NCBI RefSeq assembly: GCF_023638055.1
Contig: NZ_JAKRVY010000004.1
Span: 1 to 64,000, forward strand
Origin: Natranaeroarchaeum aerophilus
GTDB lineage: Archaea > Halobacteriota > Halobacteria > Halobacteriales > Natronoarchaeaceae
DNA length: 64,000 nt
Direction of reading: 5' to 3'
Both the position numbers and the translations under genes were made by a program. Below, piece after piece: positions 1,828 to 12,915 of the stretch. The notes beneath the pieces were generated by a model. The model was not told the origin of the DNA, did no database searches, and worked only from the letters and a program-made list of their open reading frames with translations. The first letter of the stretch is position 1. Each line of letters opens with the position of its first letter.

Positions 1828-1842
1828 TACATAGGCTATGTA
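1828..1842. promoter_or_regulatory. Inverted repeat overlapping the tnpB start
   Basis: TACATA (1828-1833), GGC, TATGTA (1837-1842) forms a perfect 6-bp inverted repeat that ends on the first base of the tnpB start codon. It could be an operator or an RNA hairpin that limits tnpB translation. A possible TATA-like ATTTAT lies just upstream at 1821-1826. Confidence 0.4.
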
Positions 1843-3092
1843 TGGCGATTGAGGCTACTCGCACCTACGTTGGTTCCATCCAGAACCAGCGACAGGTCTG
1901 TGATGGCCTTGATTCGCTTGGAGACTCTGCCTCGAAAATCTGGAACGTTGCACGATGGACAGCCGACCGCATCTGGGATGAGACTGGGGACATTCCAGAT
2001 GAGGGAACGCTCAAAGCCTACATGAAGAACCAGCCGTGCTGGAAAGATCTGAACGCACAATCCAGTCAGAAAGTCATCGAAGAACTTTCTGACGCTTTCC
2101 AGTCGTGGTTCGACCTGCGACACAAGTTTGATGAGGCGAATCCGCCCGGCTACCGCAAACACCGCGACAGACGCCCCAAGAGTACAGTCACGTTCAAAGA
2201 AGACGGGTTCAAACACGACCCCGAGAACAACCGCGTCCGACTCAGTAAAGGCTCGAATCTCAAGGAGAATTGGTCGGACTTCATTCTCTGTGAATACCAG
2301 ACGCGCCCAGACGTTCATCTCTCGGAAGTCAACCGAGTGCAAAACGTTCGCGCCGTCTGGAACGGTGACGAGTGGGAGTTGCACTTTGTCTGCAAGGTTG
2401 AACTCGAAACCAACGATTCCGCGGGCGACGGCGTTGCAGGAATCGACCTCGGAATCACGAACATCGCCACGGTCGCGTTCCCCGACGAATACGTGCTGTA
2501 CCCCGGAAACTCGCTCAAACAGGACAAACATTACTTCACCCGAACTGAGTACGATACTGAGGGCGAGGACAGTCCGTCAGAGAAGTCGATGTGGGCACGT
2601 CGGAAACTCGCAGATCGGGAAACGCATTTCTACCACACGCTTACGCACACCATCATTAAGGAGTGTGTCGAACGTGGTGTCGGTACGCTCGCGGTGAGTT
2701 GGCCTGAAGACGTGCGAAAGTCAGACTGGGGGAAGACTGGGAACAAGAAACTCCACACCTGGGCGTTCGACCGCATCTACCAGTACCTCGAATACAAAGG
2801 CGAGATGCGTGGCGTTGAGGTGCTGAAAGAGAACGAGTGGGACACCTCGAAGACGTGTTCCCGGTGTGGTGAGGACACGAAGTCGAACCGTGTCGAACGT
2901 GGCCTGTACGTTTGTTCGTCGTGCGAGTTGGTCGGGAACGCGGATTGCAACGGGGCGGAGAACATGCGACAGAAGATAACTCCGAGTCCTCATGGTGAGG
3001 ATAGGAGTAACGGCTGTGTGGCACAGCCATCGGTACACCTGTTCGACCGCGAGAGCGGGACGTTCAACACGAGAGAACAGGTCGTATCGTAA
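1842..3092 (+). CDS. tnpB: RNA-guided endonuclease TnpB (IS1341 type)
   Basis: 416 residues, a normal length for TnpB. The RuvC-like nuclease is complete: first Asp in GIDLGITNIA (D202), Glu in SWPEDVRKSDWG (E289), and last Asp in GNADCNGAEN (D368). A zinc finger sits between, with CSRC (C339, C342) and CSSC (C358, C361). TnpB proteins are RNA-guided DNA nucleases, ancestors of Cas12, that use an omega-RNA from the 3' end of the element to cut the donor site and help keep the element. All catalytic residues are kept, so this copy is probably active as a nuclease even though no tnpA is next to it. Confidence 0.9.
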   Translation: MAIEATRTYVGSIQNQRQVCDGLDSLGDSASKIWNVARWTADRIWDETGDIPDEGTLKAYMKNQPCWKDLNAQSSQKVIEELSDAFQSWFDLRHKFDEANPPGYRKHRDRRPKSTVTFKEDGFKHDPENNRVRLSKGSNLKENWSDFILCEYQTRPDVHLSEVNRVQNVRAVWNGDEWELHFVCKVELETNDSAGDGVAGIDLGITNIATVAFPDEYVLYPGNSLKQDKHYFTRTEYDTEGEDSPSEKSMWARRKLADRETHFYHTLTHTIIKECVERGVGTLAVSWPEDVRKSDWGKTGNKKLHTWAFDRIYQYLEYKGEMRGVEVLKENEWDTSKTCSRCGEDTKSNRVERGLYVCSSCELVGNADCNGAENMRQKITPSPHGEDRSNGCVAQPSVHLFDRESGTFNTREQVVS

Positions 3093-3153: not shown

Positions 3154-3233
3154 CCGTTACTCCTGGGTTCGTCTTGCCTGAGGGACAAGTGTCTCGTCAG
3201 AACTTTACCCACTGTGTCAGAACCAGTCTTACA

Positions 3234-4610
3234 ATGGCTGGGACAGACGAGGAGTCGACCGATTTCGATGTCGACGCGTTGGAAGGGAGTGCTTGGTCCG
3301 TCGCGCGACTCAACGCTGAACTCGACGCAGTCCTGACAGACGCCATCGATCGGTTTCCCACGTATGTCTACGGAGAAATTTCGGACGTCAACTCGTACGA
3401 TTTTGGGACCTTTTTCGAGCTGCGGGATATCGACGACGAGGCCGTGATTTCGTGTATCGCGTGGTCCCAATCAGTTGCAACCTTCGAGCAGCCACTCGAA
3501 GAGGGAACCGCAGCGATCGTCCGGGCCTCGGTTGATTTTCATGCAGAACGAGGGAACACGCAACTAGTCGTAGCAGATTACTGGCCGGCCGGTGATTCCG
3601 CGCGCACACAGGAACTTGAACAACTGCGATCCCAACTGGAATCGGAGGGATTGCTCGCCGAGGAGCGAAAGCGTCCGCTTCCGGAGTATCCGGAGTGTAT
3701 CGGTGTCGTAACGTCGCTGTCGGGGTCCGCGCGTGAAGACTTCGTGAGTAGCGTTCAAGCGCGCGCAGCGGGGGTAACGATCAAACTGTGCGGCGCGACA
3801 GTCCAGGGAGAGAACGCTGTTCCATCGCTTGTCGGCGCGATCCAACGACTCGAACGCGACTCTTCGGTCGATATAATCGTCGTCACGCGTGGTGGCGGGT
3901 CCGATGCTGACCTCTGGTGTTTCAACGAAGAACCGGTCGTCCGTGCAATCGCTGATGCATCGACTCCCGTTGTGGTTGCCATCGGTCACGAGGACGATGA
4001 GACGCTCGCCGAAGCCGTCGCCGACCGGCGAGCGATGACGCCGACCGATGCGGGTGTGGCGACGACGCCGAATATGGACTCGGTTCGACAGTCCGTCAGG
4101 CAGGTAGAACGCCGTGTAGAGAGTGCGTATGCAGCACTTGCCGAGGAACGACTTGTTGAGTACCAGCACCGCATCGAGACCGCGTATTCAGCGCTTGAGC
4201 AACAAATTGCAGCACAGACGGCGACACGGCAACGACTTAGCGATCTCGATCAGCGCATTGCATCAGCATACACCGCCATCGTCGAGACTCGGTTGACGAC
4301 GCTTGACCAGCGAATTGACACAGCATTACGAGACATCGAACATGCTGCCGAAACGGATGCTGTAACGGCTCAGGCTGTCCAAGGGCGTGTCGGTGATCTT
4401 GAAGCACGGATCGACAGAGCGTACCAGCATCGCGTCGACCAGGAACTCTCAGCATTTAATGCCCGAATTGACAACGCGTATCGAGAGATGGAGGCGGACG
4501 CCAAGATCGAAGCTGGGACGGCCGAAGCACGGCGACTCCGCATCGTCGTTGCTATTCTAGTCGGGCTGTTACTCCTCGGAGCTGCACTGGTTGTGTTGTT
4601 CTTGATTTAA
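3234..4610 (+). CDS. xseA: Exonuclease VII large subunit, membrane-anchored form
   Basis: 458 residues from the ATG at 3234; an upstream in-frame TTG at 3174 is less likely. After an N-terminal OB-fold region (about residues 25-115) comes the exonuclease VII core with TRGGGSDADLWCFN and IGHEDDETLAEAVADRRAM, the hallmark motifs of XseA. The C-terminal 170 residues are a coiled coil with a recurring pattern (RIETAYSALE, RIASAYTAIV, RIDRAYQH, RIDNAYREM). The last 23 residues are a continuous hydrophobic segment, a predicted transmembrane helix that bacterial XseA lacks. ExoVII degrades single-stranded DNA from both ends. xseB follows, so the pair is probably one operon. Confidence 0.85.
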   Translation: MAGTDEESTDFDVDALEGSAWSVARLNAELDAVLTDAIDRFPTYVYGEISDVNSYDFGTFFELRDIDDEAVISCIAWSQSVATFEQPLEEGTAAIVRASVDFHAERGNTQLVVADYWPAGDSARTQELEQLRSQLESEGLLAEERKRPLPEYPECIGVVTSLSGSAREDFVSSVQARAAGVTIKLCGATVQGENAVPSLVGAIQRLERDSSVDIIVVTRGGGSDADLWCFNEEPVVRAIADASTPVVVAIGHEDDETLAEAVADRRAMTPTDAGVATTPNMDSVRQSVRQVERRVESAYAALAEERLVEYQHRIETAYSALEQQIAAQTATRQRLSDLDQRIASAYTAIVETRLTTLDQRIDTALRDIEHAAETDAVTAQAVQGRVGDLEARIDRAYQHRVDQELSAFNARIDNAYREMEADAKIEAGTAEARRLRIVVAILVGLLLLGAALVVLFLI

Positions 4611-4928: not shown

Positions 4929-5849
4929 ATGGGATCTCCGACGGCAGCAACAGACGGGTCGTGTCACGTCGACAGCGTTGCAGATCTCAGAAACTCAGCA
5001 TCAGAAGCCCCTCCGACGATCGTCCAAATTAGCGATATCCACGGCTACCTGGAGAGTGCTCGCAGTGCACTGTTGGCTGTCGGAGAAGTTGATGAGTTCG
5101 ATCCAATCGTCGAAGCTGATGATCAGGGTCGCCTCCACTGGGCCTGTGGTGACGAGTATGTTCTTGTGTTCAATGGTGATATGGTTGACCGCGGGCCTGC
5201 CAGCGACGAGTGTCTCGACCTAGTGTGGCGTCTCCAGTCTGAGGCACCACCTGGGCATGTCCGGTATCACCTTGGGAACCACGAAATGGCACTACTGGTT
5301 CCCGATGTGCTTCACTGGCCTCACTGGTACGTCGGGAACCAGCCCCCATCGGTCAGCCGGATGTACTACAATGCAATCCGTGAAGGGCGCGTCTCCGTAG
5401 CGTTCGAGGGGTACGAGCACACGTATGCGCACGCGGGTTCCAACGATCCGATCGATGTCTCGTCACTGAATCAATCACTGCAGGACGCTGCACAGAAATT
5501 ACTCGTTGCAATGAACGATGGCGAATGGGCACAGGTACAACAGGAGCTCGTCGATCAATATCCGACAGTGTTTGGAACCGGTGGGACATCCGGACGTGGT
5601 CCAGGTGCGGGTGTTCTCTGGCTCGACTACCAGTACCTGTCCGACGATGCTCCACAACAAATTGTCGGACATACTCGACAGAGAAAGCCCACCCGCGATG
5701 GGAACGTGATCTGTGGCAACGTCATCCGGAAAAACCAGGGCTCTATCGGTGGTGAGGGCGTCATTGTCGAAACGCCTGATGACGTGGGTGTTGTGGTCCG
5801 GAAAGAGGACGAGTCAGCGTCGTGTACGTTCTTTTCAGAAGTGGAATAG
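4929..5849 (+). CDS. Calcineurin-like metallophosphatase
   Basis: 306 residues with the full dimetal phosphoesterase signature: SDIHG (D36, H38), GDMVDRG (D84, D87), GNHE (N117, H118, E119) and a late GHTRQ histidine motif. The GDMVDRG-GNHE spacing is that of the PPP/diadenosine tetraphosphatase group, so a protein Ser/Thr phosphatase or Ap4A-type hydrolase is possible. No signal peptide is seen, so it is cytoplasmic. It follows xseB by 55 bp on the same strand but has no clear functional tie. The substrate cannot be assigned. Confidence 0.75.
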   Translation: MGSPTAATDGSCHVDSVADLRNSASEAPPTIVQISDIHGYLESARSALLAVGEVDEFDPIVEADDQGRLHWACGDEYVLVFNGDMVDRGPASDECLDLVWRLQSEAPPGHVRYHLGNHEMALLVPDVLHWPHWYVGNQPPSVSRMYYNAIREGRVSVAFEGYEHTYAHAGSNDPIDVSSLNQSLQDAAQKLLVAMNDGEWAQVQQELVDQYPTVFGTGGTSGRGPGAGVLWLDYQYLSDDAPQQIVGHTRQRKPTRDGNVICGNVIRKNQGSIGGEGVIVETPDDVGVVVRKEDESASCTFFSEVE

Positions 5850-6105: not shown

Positions 6106-8319
6106 TTAGTCGGTACGGTACTGCTTTACCAGCGGCAGCACCTGTTCCGTGACGACATCTGCATCGACATGACTCCATCCACTAATTGAGACATCACTGC
6201 TGAAGTTCACTGAGATTGTCCCATCGCTACCCGCCCCCCTATGCTTCTTTATTAGGGGTACAATTTCGTCTTCAACTACCGATCTCTCAACCGGTATCCA
6301 TCCACCAATTGGCGCTCCATTCCCCAAGTATACCTTGTGTGATTTCGATTCGTGATCGCTTTTAGCCTCTCGTTGCCCTGTCGTTGTCTTTGAGTCGACG
6401 CCGTCCTCCAAATCAAGTTCCTGCCGGCGAATATACTTGCTTTCTGTAATCTCAAAGATCTCCTCTTCTGTGATTGGGACAGTTTCGTTCTCAAGAAGCT
6501 GGTCTATTTTTTCTGGATCAAATGTTTCGACAGTAACCTGCTCAGCTGGGACGCCGTGGTTACGAAGTACCTCGGTGACTGTCTCATCATCTCGTAACGA
6601 ACGCCGGCGACTTTCCGTCCCTACTACTTTCCCAAACTCACCCGCGACCGTTTCGTCCGGCCCGACTCGTGATGCTAGCTCATCTCGTACGTCCGTCCGA
6701 AGGTCGTCAATCTGTGATTTTGCCTTGGAGAACAATGCATAGCGATCCGCGAGTGTCTCCGTCTCCATCTCTGAAACATCGAAGGGGTGCTCCGTCTCTA
6801 ATCCCATTACTGTTTCCAGAACTTCCTGCAGAGCAGCCCCCTGACTATCGTCCGCAGTTGCGCTTTGTGGACCCTCTTCTTTCTCGTCTTCGTTGTCAGA
6901 GGTTGCTCGGTCATCATAGACCCGAGCACAGTATGCGTGGTCCCCAATGAGAGATTGAACCGCTTTCCGAGATGGCTTCTTCACCTCAGACCCAGATCCG
7001 GTTAAGACTGCGAGTACAGCCTGATTCTGCAAATCGTGGCGTTCTATCGTTGTCCGGATTGAATCGAGAGTTGTGGACCCTGTGACCTCGAACTCGAACG
7101 TACTGAATGAGCGAGTATCGAGTTCGTGTCGAGTCATCTGTAAGGTGCCATCCGAGATAGAGTACTCGTTGACCCCACACTCCGGTGGGGCTTGTTCTAT
7201 TGTCGATTGCGATAGAATATGCTCGACACTTCCAGGGTCAAGGAGATGCCTTCCAGCATGTTCTTTACAGACTGGATGTGCCCGTTTGCCGGCAAAGAAC
7301 GCTATCGGCTGTGAAGGTGCCCGACGCTCGACCGCTTGGATCACACGGTTGTTGGAGCGGCCCACATCGGTGCCGCCACACGCAACTAACAGTGTCTCGT
7401 CCTCAGAGACCTCCGTGAAAGCGATCTCCTCCACAGTTGATTGTGAAGCGTCGTCAATGCCGACCAGCGTCAGACCATCGTCCAGTTCGACAGTCTGTCC
7501 CCCGATTGGCTTCAGGAAGCCGCTTCTTGCAAGGCTCTCCAGTACGGTTGACTGAATCTCGGCTTCTTTTGGCCCGCACACAAAATAGAACGGTATAGAG
7601 TTGTCTTTGAGCTTTTTCAGCTCTGTTTGTAGATTAGAGACAGTCTCGCGGTCAGGCTTTCGGCTCTGGAATAGATGGCCTGTATGGAGGACCGCATCGA
7701 CTTGTCTGTCGATAGCAGTATCAACAGCTTGGGCAAAAGCGTCGAGATAATCGGACTTGCGCGCAACTCTACCCATGTTCTTACGGCCAAGCGTCGTTTT
7801 TCCTATGTGGAGAAGTGAAAGCGACGGCGACTGCTTATCCGGTGCTGGATGTTTCTTCTTTTGCTCAATCGGATCACTGTTACTTGTATCAGAGACCAAG
7901 GAGTCGGTCTGCGCTATCCAGTCTTCTTTGAATTCAAAATCAGCAACTGAAAGATGCTGATCCAAGGCTGAGGCGGCAATTACGTCAGATAGCTGTTCTC
8001 GGGTATCCCTGCCAACACGGCGTCCCTGAAGATGATCAGCTAGAGCTGCCGCTTCCTCACTCCGCATGGGAGTCAGCGCGTCCGGGACCGCGAGATCATC
8101 AGAAAACGAGCCACCCGTATTCGGTAACCAGGCGTCTCCAATGAGGGCTAACGCTTTGAACAAATACCAAGGCAAGGTATCGCCGGAGCTGTATCCTAAC
8201 TCGGTCAGCAGTTGCTTTGCCTCTGGACGAAGCGAGAACGTATACCGGCCATTTGGAAAAGAGGCCTTGATCCGAAGTTCGTCATCTGTGCTGCGGACCA
8301 ACTTAGGTGGCTTTGCCAT
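6106..8319 (-). CDS. Mre11/SbcD-like protein with a degenerate nuclease site
   Basis: 737 residues. Residues about 168-255 match the Mre11/SbcD phosphoesterase fold in order (LLHIGKTTLG, SDYLDAFAQAVDTAIDRQVD, LHTGHLFQSRKP, IPFYFVCGPKE), but the metal ligands are gone: HISDTHLG has become HIGKTTLG (K174, T176), GDLF has become GHLF (H215), GNHD has become GPKE (249-252), and the GHIH region is AGKRAH (343-348). A conserved N-terminal domain (about 1-140), an acidic linker near 475-500, a helical region and two C-terminal repeats (GGWIPVERSVVEDEIVPLI and SGWSHVDADVVTEQVLPLV) surround it. No Rad50/SbcC gene is next to it. The likely role is binding, not cutting, DNA or a partner; that is inference. 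Confidence 0.75.
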   Translation of the reverse strand: MAKPPKLVRSTDDELRIKASFPNGRYTFSLRPEAKQLLTELGYSSGDTLPWYLFKALALIGDAWLPNTGGSFSDDLAVPDALTPMRSEEAAALADHLQGRRVGRDTREQLSDVIAASALDQHLSVADFEFKEDWIAQTDSLVSDTSNSDPIEQKKKHPAPDKQSPSLSLLHIGKTTLGRKNMGRVARKSDYLDAFAQAVDTAIDRQVDAVLHTGHLFQSRKPDRETVSNLQTELKKLKDNSIPFYFVCGPKEAEIQSTVLESLARSGFLKPIGGQTVELDDGLTLVGIDDASQSTVEEIAFTEVSEDETLLVACGGTDVGRSNNRVIQAVERRAPSQPIAFFAGKRAHPVCKEHAGRHLLDPGSVEHILSQSTIEQAPPECGVNEYSISDGTLQMTRHELDTRSFSTFEFEVTGSTTLDSIRTTIERHDLQNQAVLAVLTGSGSEVKKPSRKAVQSLIGDHAYCARVYDDRATSDNEDEKEEGPQSATADDSQGAALQEVLETVMGLETEHPFDVSEMETETLADRYALFSKAKSQIDDLRTDVRDELASRVGPDETVAGEFGKVVGTESRRRSLRDDETVTEVLRNHGVPAEQVTVETFDPEKIDQLLENETVPITEEEIFEITESKYIRRQELDLEDGVDSKTTTGQREAKSDHESKSHKVYLGNGAPIGGWIPVERSVVEDEIVPLIKKHRGAGSDGTISVNFSSDVSISGWSHVDADVVTEQVLPLVKQYRTD

Positions 8320-9042: not shown

Positions 9043-9678
9043 TTATGGACCTAGCCGGGAGAACTTTCGGTACATCCGCTTCCATCGGCGGTACGCCGTT
9101 TTCGCAGATTTCATCCCAGCGAGCACTTCCGCGAAAGTAGACGGTTCGGCTTCGGCTTCCGTAATCGCCGTCGGTGCGATCGCATTTCCCGAGTGAACGG
9201 CATCGTGACATGGTTCACACAACGTAACGAGATTCTCGAAGCGGTGAACCCCACCACGTGATTTCGGAACGATGTGATGAGCATGTAATTCGACATCACC
9301 ATACGGCCCCCCTCGGCGACGGCAGTTTTGACACTGGTAGTCGTCACGGCTGTACACTCGCTGTCGACGCCGATCCCAATCAGGAGGGTAGTCCTGCGTC
9401 GATTGGCGGACGACCCCCGTTTGAGTCCGGTTTTCTTCGACAGTTACGGGGGCATCAAGGACTTCCTCAAGATCGACATCGTCTGGGTCGATCGTCTCCT
9501 CTTCCTCCGTAAAGATGTCCAGCTCAACGACCTCCTGCAGATCGTCAACACTCTCCAGGGCGGCAGGATCGACATCCACCTCGTCAAGAAACTCACGAAC
9601 TGTCGCGGGATCATCGTCCTGAACATCTTCATTCTCAGTGTAAGCGTGCCTACCGCTATCGGGCGTTTTTCCCGTCAT
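9043..9678 (-). CDS. HNH endonuclease domain protein
   Basis: 211 residues. The first 95 are a very acidic, low-complexity region. The HNH domain follows: zinc ligands CQNC (C116, C119) and CEPCH (C154, C157, H158), the catalytic HAHHIVPKSRGG (H134, H135) and Asn149 in FENLVTLC. The C-terminus is basic (AYRRWKRMYRKFSR) and may bind nucleic acid. HNH proteins of this size occur as homing or restriction nucleases and as mobile-element genes. The accessory setting fits that, but the target is unknown. Confidence 0.8.
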   Translation of the reverse strand: MTGKTPDSGRHAYTENEDVQDDDPATVREFLDEVDVDPAALESVDDLQEVVELDIFTEEEETIDPDDVDLEEVLDAPVTVEENRTQTGVVRQSTQDYPPDWDRRRQRVYSRDDYQCQNCRRRGGPYGDVELHAHHIVPKSRGGVHRFENLVTLCEPCHDAVHSGNAIAPTAITEAEAEPSTFAEVLAGMKSAKTAYRRWKRMYRKFSRLGP

Positions 9679-10116: not shown

Positions 10117-11497
10117 ATGGATACAGAAAACAGAAGCAAGGAGATAACAGACGCGTTGGAAGGAATGGTCGGAGAGGACGCCGATCACGTCGAAAAAAGG
10201 CGTCAAGAATGGTATGATTGGATGAGAGAGAAGGGGAAATCCCCGCTCAAGCACGAACCGGTGGCGGAATCGAATGCTGATAATTACTATCGTCGACTCG
10301 ACCAGCTCCATAGGGCTGCGATCGAGTACCTCAACCCAGACGACAAGGCCTCTCTCACCCCCGACCAAGCAGACGAACTGCTGTTGCTATTGGCACGGGA
10401 TGAGCTACAGAAAGAGAATGGCGGGGATTACTCGTCTGCCTCGAAAAGAAAGTTCTCGGACGCGCTGAGAAAGTATTATCAGTTGGAGATACCATGAGGG
10501 GCCTCTGGACTTTGAGTGGCGGCCGAGAGTCAATTTTACAGACGGGAATCACACGTCAGCTGCTGAATTCTCATACGAGGAGACGGGGTTGTTGTTTGAA
10601 GCAGCGCAATCGTACCATAAACTCCCGTCCTACTACGACACCCCACCGGAAGAACGCGATCGGATCAACGGCCTCGTTGCACAGCGACTAAGCAAACCAA
10701 AGGGAGCTGTTACGCGAAAGGATTGGCAGCGGGCAGACCAGAGTAGTAAAATCTCTGCACTCATCAGTGTTGGACACGACGCTGGCCTACTCCCGGCCGA
10801 AGTCGAAGAAGCAGAGGTCAGTTGGTATAAACCAGATCAACAGATTTTGAAGATTCCCCCTGAGAAGGCTGCAAAAGAGCGAGAGAAGTTTGAGGTAGCA
10901 TTGTCTGACGAATCGTGTGAGTGGATGAGTCGCTGGGTACGAGAGCGACGACACCTCGCAAAGTATGATGGATCCAATAAACTCTGGCTCAACAGAGAGG
11001 GGAACCCGTACCAGTCAGGGAGCCTGTGTAATATCGTGCGGAAGCTCTGTGAGGAAGCCGACATACCGACTGAGGACCGCGAAGTGAGATGGTACAGTCT
11101 CCGGCACACCCTGGGCAGACATATGAAATCGGACGGCAGTCTAGCGCAAGTGAACGATCAACTTCGCCACGAAACATTCGAAACTACCGTCTCTACATAC
11201 GGTGATTCGGCTGCCGAAGAACGACAACAAACTCTCAACAAGAGTCGTCGGAAGGCAAAGCGAGCTGCTGAAGATCCGGAGTACAACCCATACGCGGACG
11301 ACGATGCCGACAACACCAGTGATCAGGTATCGAGATCATCAAGCGACGCGGATAAAGTTGTGACTGACGCTGGAGGGGGAGATGTACACATCGACGCCGT
11401 CATCGATAATACGAGCGAAGCAAAAGTCGATATCACCCGCAAAATCTTGTCAGACCAAGAATCGCCGGATGATCGCTCGTCGACTTCGGACGACTAG
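10117..11497 (+). pseudogene. Tyrosine recombinase, frameshifted and lacking catalytic Arg I
   Basis: The N-terminal core-binding half reads from ATG 10117 to a stop at 10497. The second half, recovered in the +1 frame, resumes as GPLDFEWRPRVNFTDG and runs to 11497. One extra T at about 10483 (CAGTTGG) accounts for the shift. In the catalytic part the first Arg is replaced: GLLPAEVEEA where the neighbouring intact recombinase has GLRPIEVERA. Later motifs (WYSLRHT, QLRHE, final Tyr in STYGD) are kept. It looks like a decaying paralogue of the convergent recombinase. A sequencing error could explain the shift but not the missing Arg. Confidence 0.7.
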
Positions 11498-12621
11498 CCC
11501 ATCCGATCCAGTGCGTTTTTGCGGTCCTCTACGGGTGCCTGATCGTATTTCATCGTCGTCTCAGGGCTCCGGTGTCGGAGCTGAGTTTGCGCTGCTGCGA
11601 GACCCTCCTCACGGGCCATATAGGTTCCAACCGAGTGCCTGATAGAGTACCAGCTCATCTGTCGGTTCTCGACAGAGATGTCCGCGTACTCACACAGCGT
11701 ATGCAGTACCGACCGGAGCGACGCCGATTGATACGGGTTCCCCCGCCTCGTCAGCCACAGCGCGTCTGTATCATCATACTTGTCGATCACCTTCCGCTGT
11801 TCGAGCCAGTACTCCAGCATCTCGATGGTTTGGTCTCGAAGACTCACGATCCAGTTTTCGACGTTTTTCGATGACTCCTCACGCGGGATTCGCAACACAC
11901 CGTTCTCTAGATCCACCCACGATGTACGGGCTCGTTCGACTTCGATCGGGCGCAGCCCCGCGTCCAGACTCACGCTGACCAGACTAGGGATCTTCCAGCT
12001 GTTCGCCCGCTCCCAGTCTTCCTCGGTGAGTTCCTCTTTCGGTTTCTCGAATCGCTGGGCAAGGTATGCACGCCAGCGCTCGCGTTCATCACCGTACACG
12101 CTCTCACGCTTGGGTACGCTCCCGTATTCGAGTGCTGCATCCCGGATCTTCGGGCGTTCCTCTCGTGTAAGGTAGTCCCTCGGCGTTGTCGACTGGTTCT
12201 TGCGAGAGAACGTGATCTCCGGATCCCACTCTTCGCCGCCACGCTCGTGCTGACGCCATTTATACAGCATCATCACCGCCTTGCGACAGGCGCTCTTGTG
12301 AGCGTTCGAGTTCTCCTGTCGGGCGAGGTGCTTCAGGTATCCGTCGGCATGAGCAAGCGTGACGCTGGACGTGTAGCCTCCTTCTTCTTGCCAGACCCAG
12401 CGGTAGAACTGGTCCATTCGATACGCCCGGTTCTTCACCGTTGTCTTCGCATACCCTTCAGCGTGCTTTGGGTCTTTGCCGAATACCAGCAGCCATTCGA
12501 GACAGTGTTCTCGCTGCGTTCGGTAGTCAACGAGTTGTCGTTCATTAAGTAATTCTTCTGAGTTTTCCGTGACGACAGTGACCCCTTTGAGGGGGGTGGT
12601 TGCCTGTTCGTCGTTATTCAT
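11494..12621 (-). CDS. Tyrosine recombinase/integrase (intact)
   Basis: 375 residues. A SAM-like core-binding domain (about 35-130) is followed by the catalytic domain with Arg in AGLRPIEVER (R224), a Lys in IPREESSKN (about 252), WYSIRHS (R328), LRHRSPETT (H350) and the nucleophile Tyr in TMKYD (Y359). Tyrosine recombinases cut and rejoin DNA through a 3'-phosphotyrosine. It overlaps the end of the frameshifted recombinase by 4 bp, tail to tail, and its start lies about 220 bp from the 3' end of tRNA-Glu, a likely attachment site. It probably drives or once drove integration of the accessory region. Confidence 0.85.
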   Translation of the reverse strand: MNNDEQATTPLKGVTVVTENSEELLNERQLVDYRTQREHCLEWLLVFGKDPKHAEGYAKTTVKNRAYRMDQFYRWVWQEEGGYTSSVTLAHADGYLKHLARQENSNAHKSACRKAVMMLYKWRQHERGGEEWDPEITFSRKNQSTTPRDYLTREERPKIRDAALEYGSVPKRESVYGDERERWRAYLAQRFEKPKEELTEEDWERANSWKIPSLVSVSLDAGLRPIEVERARTSWVDLENGVLRIPREESSKNVENWIVSLRDQTIEMLEYWLEQRKVIDKYDDTDALWLTRRGNPYQSASLRSVLHTLCEYADISVENRQMSWYSIRHSVGTYMAREEGLAAAQTQLRHRSPETTMKYDQAPVEDRKNALDRMG

Positions 12622-12840
12622 TGCCTGCCCTCCGATTTGGAACCCGGTTCGTTGCCCATCGATTTCGCTGATCGCAAGACGGCGATGGATTTTGCCCCGT
12701 TAACTTCGTTGCCTTTAATTTCACCCGGATCGCAAGAGGGCGGCGACTTTGACGCGTCTTCTGAACCGCATTGACCTTGAGCATGAGTTAATCACTTGTA
12801 ACTCACGGGTGAAAACTACCGGATGGGAGGAAGATAGGAG

Positions 12841-12915
12841 TGCTCCGACTGGGATTCGAACCCAGGTCATTGCCGTGAGAGGGCAATATGATTGGCCGGA
12901 CTACACCATCGGAGC
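12841..12915 (-). tRNA. tRNA-Glu (anticodon CUC)
   Basis: On the minus strand the 75-nt sequence folds as a cloverleaf. The acceptor GCTCCGA pairs with TCGGAGC and ends in an A discriminator. The anticodon stem TTGCC/GGCAA closes the loop CTCTCAC, giving anticodon CTC. The T arm contains GGGTTCGAATCCC. No intron. CCA is not encoded. Its 3' end faces the integrase. Confidence 0.93.

What the first reader, a model, noticed from the sequence alone, without database searches (positions are those of the whole stretch)
6106..8319. Mre11/SbcD-like protein with every aligned metal ligand lost
The Mre11 order of motifs is kept but H-D-T-H has become H-K-T-T, GDLF is GHLF, GNHD is GPKE and GHIH is AGKRAH. 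It also has a unique N-terminal domain and two C-terminal repeats. Clean loss of several ligands with the fold kept suggests a new structural or regulatory use, such as sensing DNA ends or phage anti-nuclease proteins. Its accessory setting hints at defence or element biology.
Basis: partly seen in the sequence, partly recalled or inferred. Interest (0 to 1): 0.75.

Follow-up and report, generated by a model that had tools for sequence, protein, structure and literature searches.

The report
Nuclease-dead Mre11 cousin in haloarchaeal island
A salt-loving archaeon carries, on a mobile DNA island, a protein built on the frame of the DNA-break-processing enzyme Mre11 but with its metal-holding cutting site gone; it belongs to a small undescribed family, some of whose members are fused to the toxin half of a known antiviral system, which suggests the frame was reused to recognise DNA rather than cut it.

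Summary
The 737-aa product (minus strand, 6106-8319) has a real Mre11 fold (NCBIfam Mre11_Halo E=2e-33; model vs archaeal Mre11s Z about 26, 2.9 A over 284 residues). All eight active-site positions kept by the host's own Mre11 (D,H,D,N,H,H,D,H) read K,T,H,P,K,G,K,A; shifts of up to 2 residues restore only one His. The loss defines a rare haloarchaeal clade (7 members, support 100), plus two Haladaptatus proteins of the same architecture on a separate long branch. The catalytic His is lost in all and is Arg/Lys in the clade. In related pairs the domain is under purifying selection (dN/dS 0.23-0.29); the clade has a fixed R-x-N-x-x-R loop. Five clade members belong to a group fused to ShosT-like phosphoribosyltransferase (one is cut by its contig end), next to DprA/ShosA. 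The nearest relative (Haloprofundus) lies beside McrBC. Here the gene sits on a low-GC island next to tRNA-Glu, beside a phosphatase whose homologues recur near these proteins. Best reading: a nuclease-dead DNA-recognition module of haloarchaeal conflict systems. Fold, ligand loss, clade and linkage are shown; DNA binding and defence are inferred. The N-terminal domain is not unique (39 of 391 genomes).

The parts
6106..8319 (-). CDS of the nuclease-dead Mre11-like protein (737 aa)
   Evidence: intact ORF, colinear homologues; GC3 0.52 against 0.77-0.85 in core genes of the window
7897..8319 (-). N-terminal domain, residues 1-141; family-wide domain (ASFxxGRYxFSL ... GDxWLP)
   Evidence: profile found in 39/391 haloarchaeal genomes; alignment A6; confident model without PDB match
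6895..7833 (-). Mre11-fold phosphodiesterase plus capping domain, residues 163-475, active-site residues lost
7792..7809 (-). motif I HIGKTT (D8 to K174, H10 to T176)
7768..7785 (-). clade-specific basic loop R179-K-N-M-G-R184 (R/N/R invariant in 7 of 7 clade members; N/Y-R-Q-Y-x-S in intact Mre11)
7669..7686 (-). motif II HTGHLF (D49 to H215)
7564..7575 (-). motif III GPKE (N84 to P250, catalytic H85 to K251)
7369..7389 (-). motif IV region VACGGT (H173 lost)
7276..7290 (-). motif V GKRAH (D206 to K345, H208 to A347)
6400..6825 (-). C-terminal domain, residues about 499-640, homologous to phrog_35116 (haloarchaeal virus/plasmid family, annotated DUF2800 in one plasmid)
6109..6354 (-). tandem beta-beta-alpha repeats, residues 656-737
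4929..5849 (+). neighbouring calcineurin/PPP-type phosphatase with intact-looking motifs (SDIHG, GDMVDRG, GNHE, GHT), convergent; homologues adjoin other members of the module set
11494..12621 (-). tyrosine integrase at the edge of the low-GC island
12840..12915 (-). tRNA-Glu(CTC) at the island boundary

Best explanation
The protein is a catalytically dead descendant of haloarchaeal Mre11 that keeps the fold as a DNA-recognition module (inferred: ends, hairpins or forks) and hands that recognition to attached modules in place of Rad50. The metal site has been filled with basic and small residues (K174, K251, K345), which could hold the phosphate backbone without cutting. A new R-K-N-M-x-R loop next to motif I and a less acidic domain fit nucleic-acid binding. 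In related genomes the same dead module is fused to helix-hairpin-helix and ShosT-like phosphoribosyltransferase (toxin-like) domains beside a DprA/ShosA gene, so the family most likely serves virus/element defence. In this genome the output would run through the phrog_35116-like domain and C-terminal repeats and perhaps the neighbouring phosphatase, because no PRTase homologue was found. Shown: fold, ligand loss, clade, purifying selection in relatives, linkage. Inferred: loss of catalysis (from the lost ligands), DNA binding, sensing, defence, and any role of the phosphatase.
For: Mre11 homology and fold. Ligand table: 8 of 8 lost here, H85 and H208 lost in all 8 degenerate proteins, none lost in the ordinary ones; H85 is R/K in 7 of 7 clade members. 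Clade of 7 with support 100. dN/dS of the dead domain 0.29 and 0.23 in related pairs. Fixed basic loop. Net charge of the domain -4.5 per 100 residues against about -11 in intact haloarchaeal Mre11; group difference p=0.0014, not corrected for relatedness. ShosT PRTase hit 1.7e-14 in the fusions and ShosA/DprA partner 1e-57. McrBC next to the closest relative. The phosphatase is beside the window gene, downstream of the ShosTA-like operon in Natronorubrum thiooxidans, and 118 bp from an N-domain-HhH protein in two other genomes. In Haladaptatus the gene evolves about 3-7 times faster at the amino-acid level than its syntenic neighbours while still constrained (dN/dS 0.32). Island with integrase at a tRNA and low GC. 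DprA plus PRTase is an experimentally shown antiphage system in E. coli (PMC9122126).
Against: No activity was measured. The window genome has no detectable PRTase or NERD-helicase homologue, so the effector half of the defence reading is missing here. The two Haladaptatus members lie among transport and metabolic genes, not in a defence island. No viral or phage record matched the family. One clade member (L086) and the Haladaptatus type keep the normal acidic charge.
Confidence: 0.55

Rival explanations
1. It is a recombination or replication accessory protein of the integrated element rather than a defence protein: the dead Mre11 domain binds DNA ends to steer element recombination, helped by the phrog_35116-like domain typical of haloarchaeal plasmids and viruses.
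For: The C-terminal domain belongs to a virus/plasmid family and is weakly similar to a phage exonuclease family, with one plasmid copy annotated DUF2800. The gene lies on a low-GC island beside integrases and tRNA-Glu.
Against: The dead Mre11 module is shared with PRTase-DprA proteins and lies beside McrBC in the nearest relative. In Haladaptatus it is in a stable place shared by two genomes.
Confidence: 0.2
2. It is a regulator or inhibitor of the host's own Mre11(-Rad50): the dead subunit forms mixed dimers through the Mre11 dimer face and blocks or redirects end resection.
For: The Mre11 fold including the capping domain is kept, and the host has an intact Mre11 on contig C13.
Against: Only 27-28% identity to the host Mre11. 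Fusions to HhH, PRTase and unrelated N-terminal domains suggest a stand-alone module. The dimer face was not examined.
Confidence: 0.12
3. The pocket has been retooled for another ligand or chemistry (for example nucleotide or phosphate sensing) rather than DNA binding.
For: Basic residues replace ligands in a site that normally holds phosphate. A phosphatase is the recurring neighbour.
Against: The pocket residues differ between members, and only the loss of H85/H208 and the basic loop are shared.
Confidence: 0.08
4. It is a decaying gene with no remaining function.
For: Eight of eight ligands lost; codon use far from the host's.
Against: Intact 737-codon frame. Losses of the same positions are shared across genera; dN/dS 0.23-0.32 in related pairs. 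New conserved residues.
Confidence: 0.05

Closest known systems
Archaeal Mre11 / bacterial SbcD nuclease
   Same: descent, phosphoesterase fold and capping domain; motif order
   Different: all eight metal/catalytic positions lost; no rad50 beside it; extra N-terminal domain and C-terminal modules; less acidic; basic loop R-K-N-M-x-R
ShosTA / PRTase-DprA toxin-antitoxin and antiphage systems
   Same: the PRTase-group relatives carry the same dead Mre11 module; the four with complete genes have a ShosT-like PRTase and an adjacent ShosA/DprA
   Different: the window protein itself has no PRTase domain and no DprA beside it; no dead Mre11 domain was found described for ShosTA in the papers searched
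phrog_35116 (haloarchaeal virus/plasmid protein, function unknown)
   Same: homologous C-terminal domain, residues about 475-639
   Different: there it stands without an Mre11 domain
Plasmid-borne haloarchaeal Mre11-Rad50-NurA-HerA operons
   Same: accessory Mre11 copies in haloarchaea
   Different: those keep all ligands and the rad50-nurA-herA-like neighbours
Haloarchaeal N-domain-HhH proteins (about 340-370 aa)
   Same: the N-terminal domain and, in two genomes, the adjacent phosphatase
   Different: they lack the Mre11 domain and have HhH motifs instead

Membership tests
Mre11/SbcD (family by descent) | profile similarity to Mre11 | tested here: met
   NCBIfam Mre11_Halo 2e-33, Mre11_Sulfo 6e-18, though below the curated equivalog cut-offs
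Mre11/SbcD (family by descent) | phosphoesterase fold plus capping domain | tested here: met
   model residues 167-472 on 3dsd/1ii7/5dny, Z about 26, 2.9-3.3 A over 279-285 residues
Mre11 nuclease | two-metal site D,H,D,N,H,H,(D/H),H with catalytic His85 | tested here: not met
   K,T,H,P,K,G,K,A; no rescue by shifts of up to 2 residues except one His
Mre11 nuclease | rad50 in the neighbourhood | tested here: not met
   the flanking ORFs are a phosphatase and an HNH protein, with no AAA/SMC gene adjacent
Mre11 nuclease | C-terminal Rad50-binding helices | tested here: inconclusive
   the region after residue 475 is a low-confidence linker followed by a phrog_35116-like domain
ShosTA | PRTase (ShosT) domain in the protein | tested here: not met
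   no Pfam or PADLOC hit in the window protein; met in relatives L012, L013, L014, L086
ShosTA | adjacent DprA/ShosA gene | tested here: not met
   none beside the window gene; present directly downstream of the fusion genes in L012, L013, L014 and L086 and of the separate PRTase gene in L010
phrog_35116 | profile similarity over its C-terminal part | tested here: met
   E=8.7e-16 over positions 120-278 of 326
DNA-binding pseudonuclease | binds DNA without cutting it | not testable with these tools
   inference from the basic loop, charge and partner domains only

The most novel reading that the evidence does not exclude
A haloarchaeal clade turned Mre11 into a dedicated nuclease-dead immune sensor of DNA ends. 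It is a plug-in module with a basic residue in place of the catalytic His and a fixed basic loop. It is combined with toxin (PRTase/DprA), HhH, N-domain and C-terminal modules, and the window protein is a PRTase-free version working with a phosphatase.
Probability: 0.3. Interest if true: 0.82.

Novelty: new variant of a known kind. Interest (0 to 1): 0.62.

Why it matters
A conserved clade of nuclease-dead Mre11 proteins is not described in any library or paper searched here. Because close relatives tie the dead domain to a known toxin-antitoxin type of antiviral system, it offers a direct test of whether the Mre11 scaffold can act as a pure DNA-end or DNA-structure sensor in immunity, separated from cutting and from Rad50. 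It also supplies a family-wide module set (N-domain, dead Mre11, HhH, PRTase, DprA, phosphatase, NERD-UvrD helicase) for guilt-by-association searches in archaea, where defence systems are less explored than in bacteria.

Tried and rejected
Direct pattern scans for close relatives in genome and viral collections found none; whole-genome and profile searches found the family. A search of annotated phage records and a profile scan of viral contigs were empty. PRTase and NERD-helicase homologues were not found in the window genome; empty answers, not proof. XseA as a linked partner: its homologue is not near any relative held, so it is not counted as part of the system. A conserved attachment repeat for the island was not found, and the other end lies off the contig. 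An N-domain fold assignment was not possible (best Z 2.6 in a second look at Foldseek's matches). Monophyly of all degenerate proteins is unsure: the Haladaptatus type (L011) is a very long branch. Papers: no match for pseudonuclease with Mre11, and no paper linking Mre11 with DprA and haloarchaeal defence was seen among the listed results.

Full report
What is there. The ORF at 6106-8319 (minus strand, 737 aa) comes from a haloarchaeal genome (G000, 32 contigs). It has no Pfam hit but a clear NCBIfam hit to haloarchaeal Mre11 (E=2e-33, residues 169-481), and solved archaeal Mre11s are the best PDB sequence matches. A model from a 22-sequence alignment (mean pLDDT 81) gives archaeal Mre11 structures as top matches over residues 163-480: Z 26.7 to 26.1, 2.9-5.6 A over 279-295 residues, for example 3dsd at 2.9 A over 285. 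The protein is therefore an Mre11 relative by fold and sequence, including the capping domain.

Ligand loss. On a MAFFT alignment with the host's own intact Mre11 (contig C13) and the other ordinary haloarchaeal Mre11s, the ordinary proteins keep D,H,D,N,H,H,D,H. The window protein reads K174,T176,H215,P250,K251,G316,K345,A347. Allowing a shift of up to 2 residues at each place restores only the last His. Positions in motifs IV and V are less certain than in motifs I to III.

A family, not a singleton. A profile of the degenerate domain over 391 haloarchaeal genomes found eight degenerate proteins in seven genomes, above all ordinary Mre11 (lowest degenerate 225 bits, next 201, canonical about 165-180; the profile was built from seven of them, so their own scores are inflated). 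Names from a second collection: Haloprofundus marisrubri (L119, equal to L010), Natronorubrum thiooxidans (L120/L121, equal to L013/L012) and Halovenus rubra (L122, equal to L015). A ninth member is in Haladaptatus sp. DYF46 (L163). Ligand patterns vary (for example D,F,D,D,R,H,D,E in L014), but H85 and H208 are lost in all, and H85 is Arg or Lys in all seven members of the main clade. That clade has support 100 and 100/99: one branch is window plus Haloprofundus, the other five are the PRTase group. The Haladaptatus type shares the N-terminal and C-terminal domains with the window protein but has a very long branch of unsure position.

Still under selection. dN/dS of the dead domain is 0.29 (L013/L014) and 0.23 (L011/L163). 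In Haladaptatus the gene product is 69% identical between two genomes, while its syntenic neighbours are 85-95% identical with dN about 3-7 times lower. This is fast but constrained change. The window sequence itself has no close enough relative for such a test. Within the clade a loop after motif I is fixed as R-x-N-x-x-R (R179-K-N-M-G-R184 here), where intact Mre11 has R-Q-Y. The domain's net charge is -4.5 per 100 residues against -9 to -14 in intact haloarchaeal Mre11, though L086 and L011 are not shifted (the p-value of 0.0014 ignores relatedness). These facts fit nucleic-acid binding but do not show it.

Modules. Residues 1-141 are a domain found in 39 of 391 genomes, mostly as small proteins and also with HhH motifs. 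It has a confident model (pLDDT 90) without a clear PDB match in the searches made. Residues about 475-639 match phrog_35116, a haloarchaeal virus/plasmid family of unknown function (E=8.7e-16). Residues 656-737 are two beta-beta-alpha repeats, also present at the end of a DEAD_2/Helicase_C_2 helicase of Haloferax larsenii and in small proteins.

Company it keeps. In L012, L013, L014 and L086 the dead domain is fused to a PRTase domain (with a Pfam HhH hit in L012-L014) and followed by a DprA gene. PADLOC gives ShosT 1.7e-14 for the L014 fusion, and ShosA 1e-57 for the homologous DprA of L010. L015 is homologous to the first part of the same protein and ends at its contig end. In L010 the window protein's nearest relative lies next to McrC/McrB genes, with a separate PRTase-DprA pair about 5 kb away. 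DprA with a PRTase protects E. coli against phages T7 and lambda (PMC9122126). The window's neighbour at 4929-5849, a phosphatase with intact-looking motifs, has a 49% homologue directly downstream of the DprA gene in L012, and homologues 118 bp from an N-domain-HhH protein in G206 and G363 (counted as one inherited event, as the two loci are similar). At about 0.2 copies per genome (33 in 170 genomes of one family), an adjacent copy is expected in roughly 0.01 of the 47 or so loci in the set; this is my rough estimate. A NERD-UvrD helicase also recurs beside these loci but was not found in the window genome.

Island. The gene has GC3 0.52 against 0.77-0.85 for nearby core genes. GC rises from about 0.52 to 0.64 at 12-13 kb, where a tyrosine integrase (11494-12621) meets tRNA-Glu (12840-12915). 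The island runs off the contig start; no attachment repeat was found.

Mechanism. Most likely (0.55): a nuclease-dead DNA-recognition scaffold in haloarchaeal conflict systems, as set out in the best explanation. Shown: fold, loss, clade, selection in relatives, fusions, linkage. Inferred: loss of catalysis, DNA binding, end or fork preference, defence, phosphatase role. Main rivals: an element recombination accessory (0.2), an inhibitor of host Mre11 (0.12), a retooled pocket (0.08), decay (0.05).

Known or new. It descends from Mre11 but fails the defining nuclease test, so it should not be called an Mre11 nuclease; nor is the window protein a ShosT. Literature and family searches found no description of the clade (open-licence papers only). 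I rate it a new variant of a known kind.

Noticed in passing
3174-4610: Exonuclease VII large subunit (XseA, TIGR00237 1.4e-89) with an unusual hydrophobic, membrane-anchor-like C-terminus; no XseA homologue near any relative of the finding.
   Followed up: partly
9043-9678: HNH endonuclease upstream of the gene on the same strand; its HNH part matches RNA-guided IscB (E=8e-16, below cut-off).
   Followed up: no
1842-3092: TnpB/IS605-type gene (Cas12f1-like TNB domain) on the same low-GC island, next to a possible VapB/PIN toxin-antitoxin pair (451-1317; no Pfam hit).
   Followed up: no
L010:13762-17052: In Haloprofundus marisrubri a 1096-aa protein joins an Mre11-like domain with nearly intact ligands to pentapeptide repeats and C-terminal hydrophobic segments, 3 kb from the window protein's closest relative.
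   Followed up: partly
L087:1065-5351: A 1428-aa protein joins the same N-terminal domain to HhH, C2H2-like zinc fingers, a region shared with the PRTase proteins and a Bles03 domain.
   Followed up: partly
L018, L019, L020: Haloarchaeal plasmids carry Mre11-Rad50-NurA-HerA-like operons, although a review says HerA/NurA are absent from H. volcanii (PMC7776575).
   Followed up: no
L086:7402-11832: A 1476-aa fusion carries two copies of the PRTase-accessory region, pentapeptide repeats, a dead Mre11 domain and a PRTase, next to DprA and a NERD-UvrD helicase.
   Followed up: partly
L011:9706-11769 and L163:8452-10215: In two Haladaptatus-type genomes the gene diverges about 3-7 times faster at the amino-acid level than its syntenic neighbours.
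   Followed up: yes
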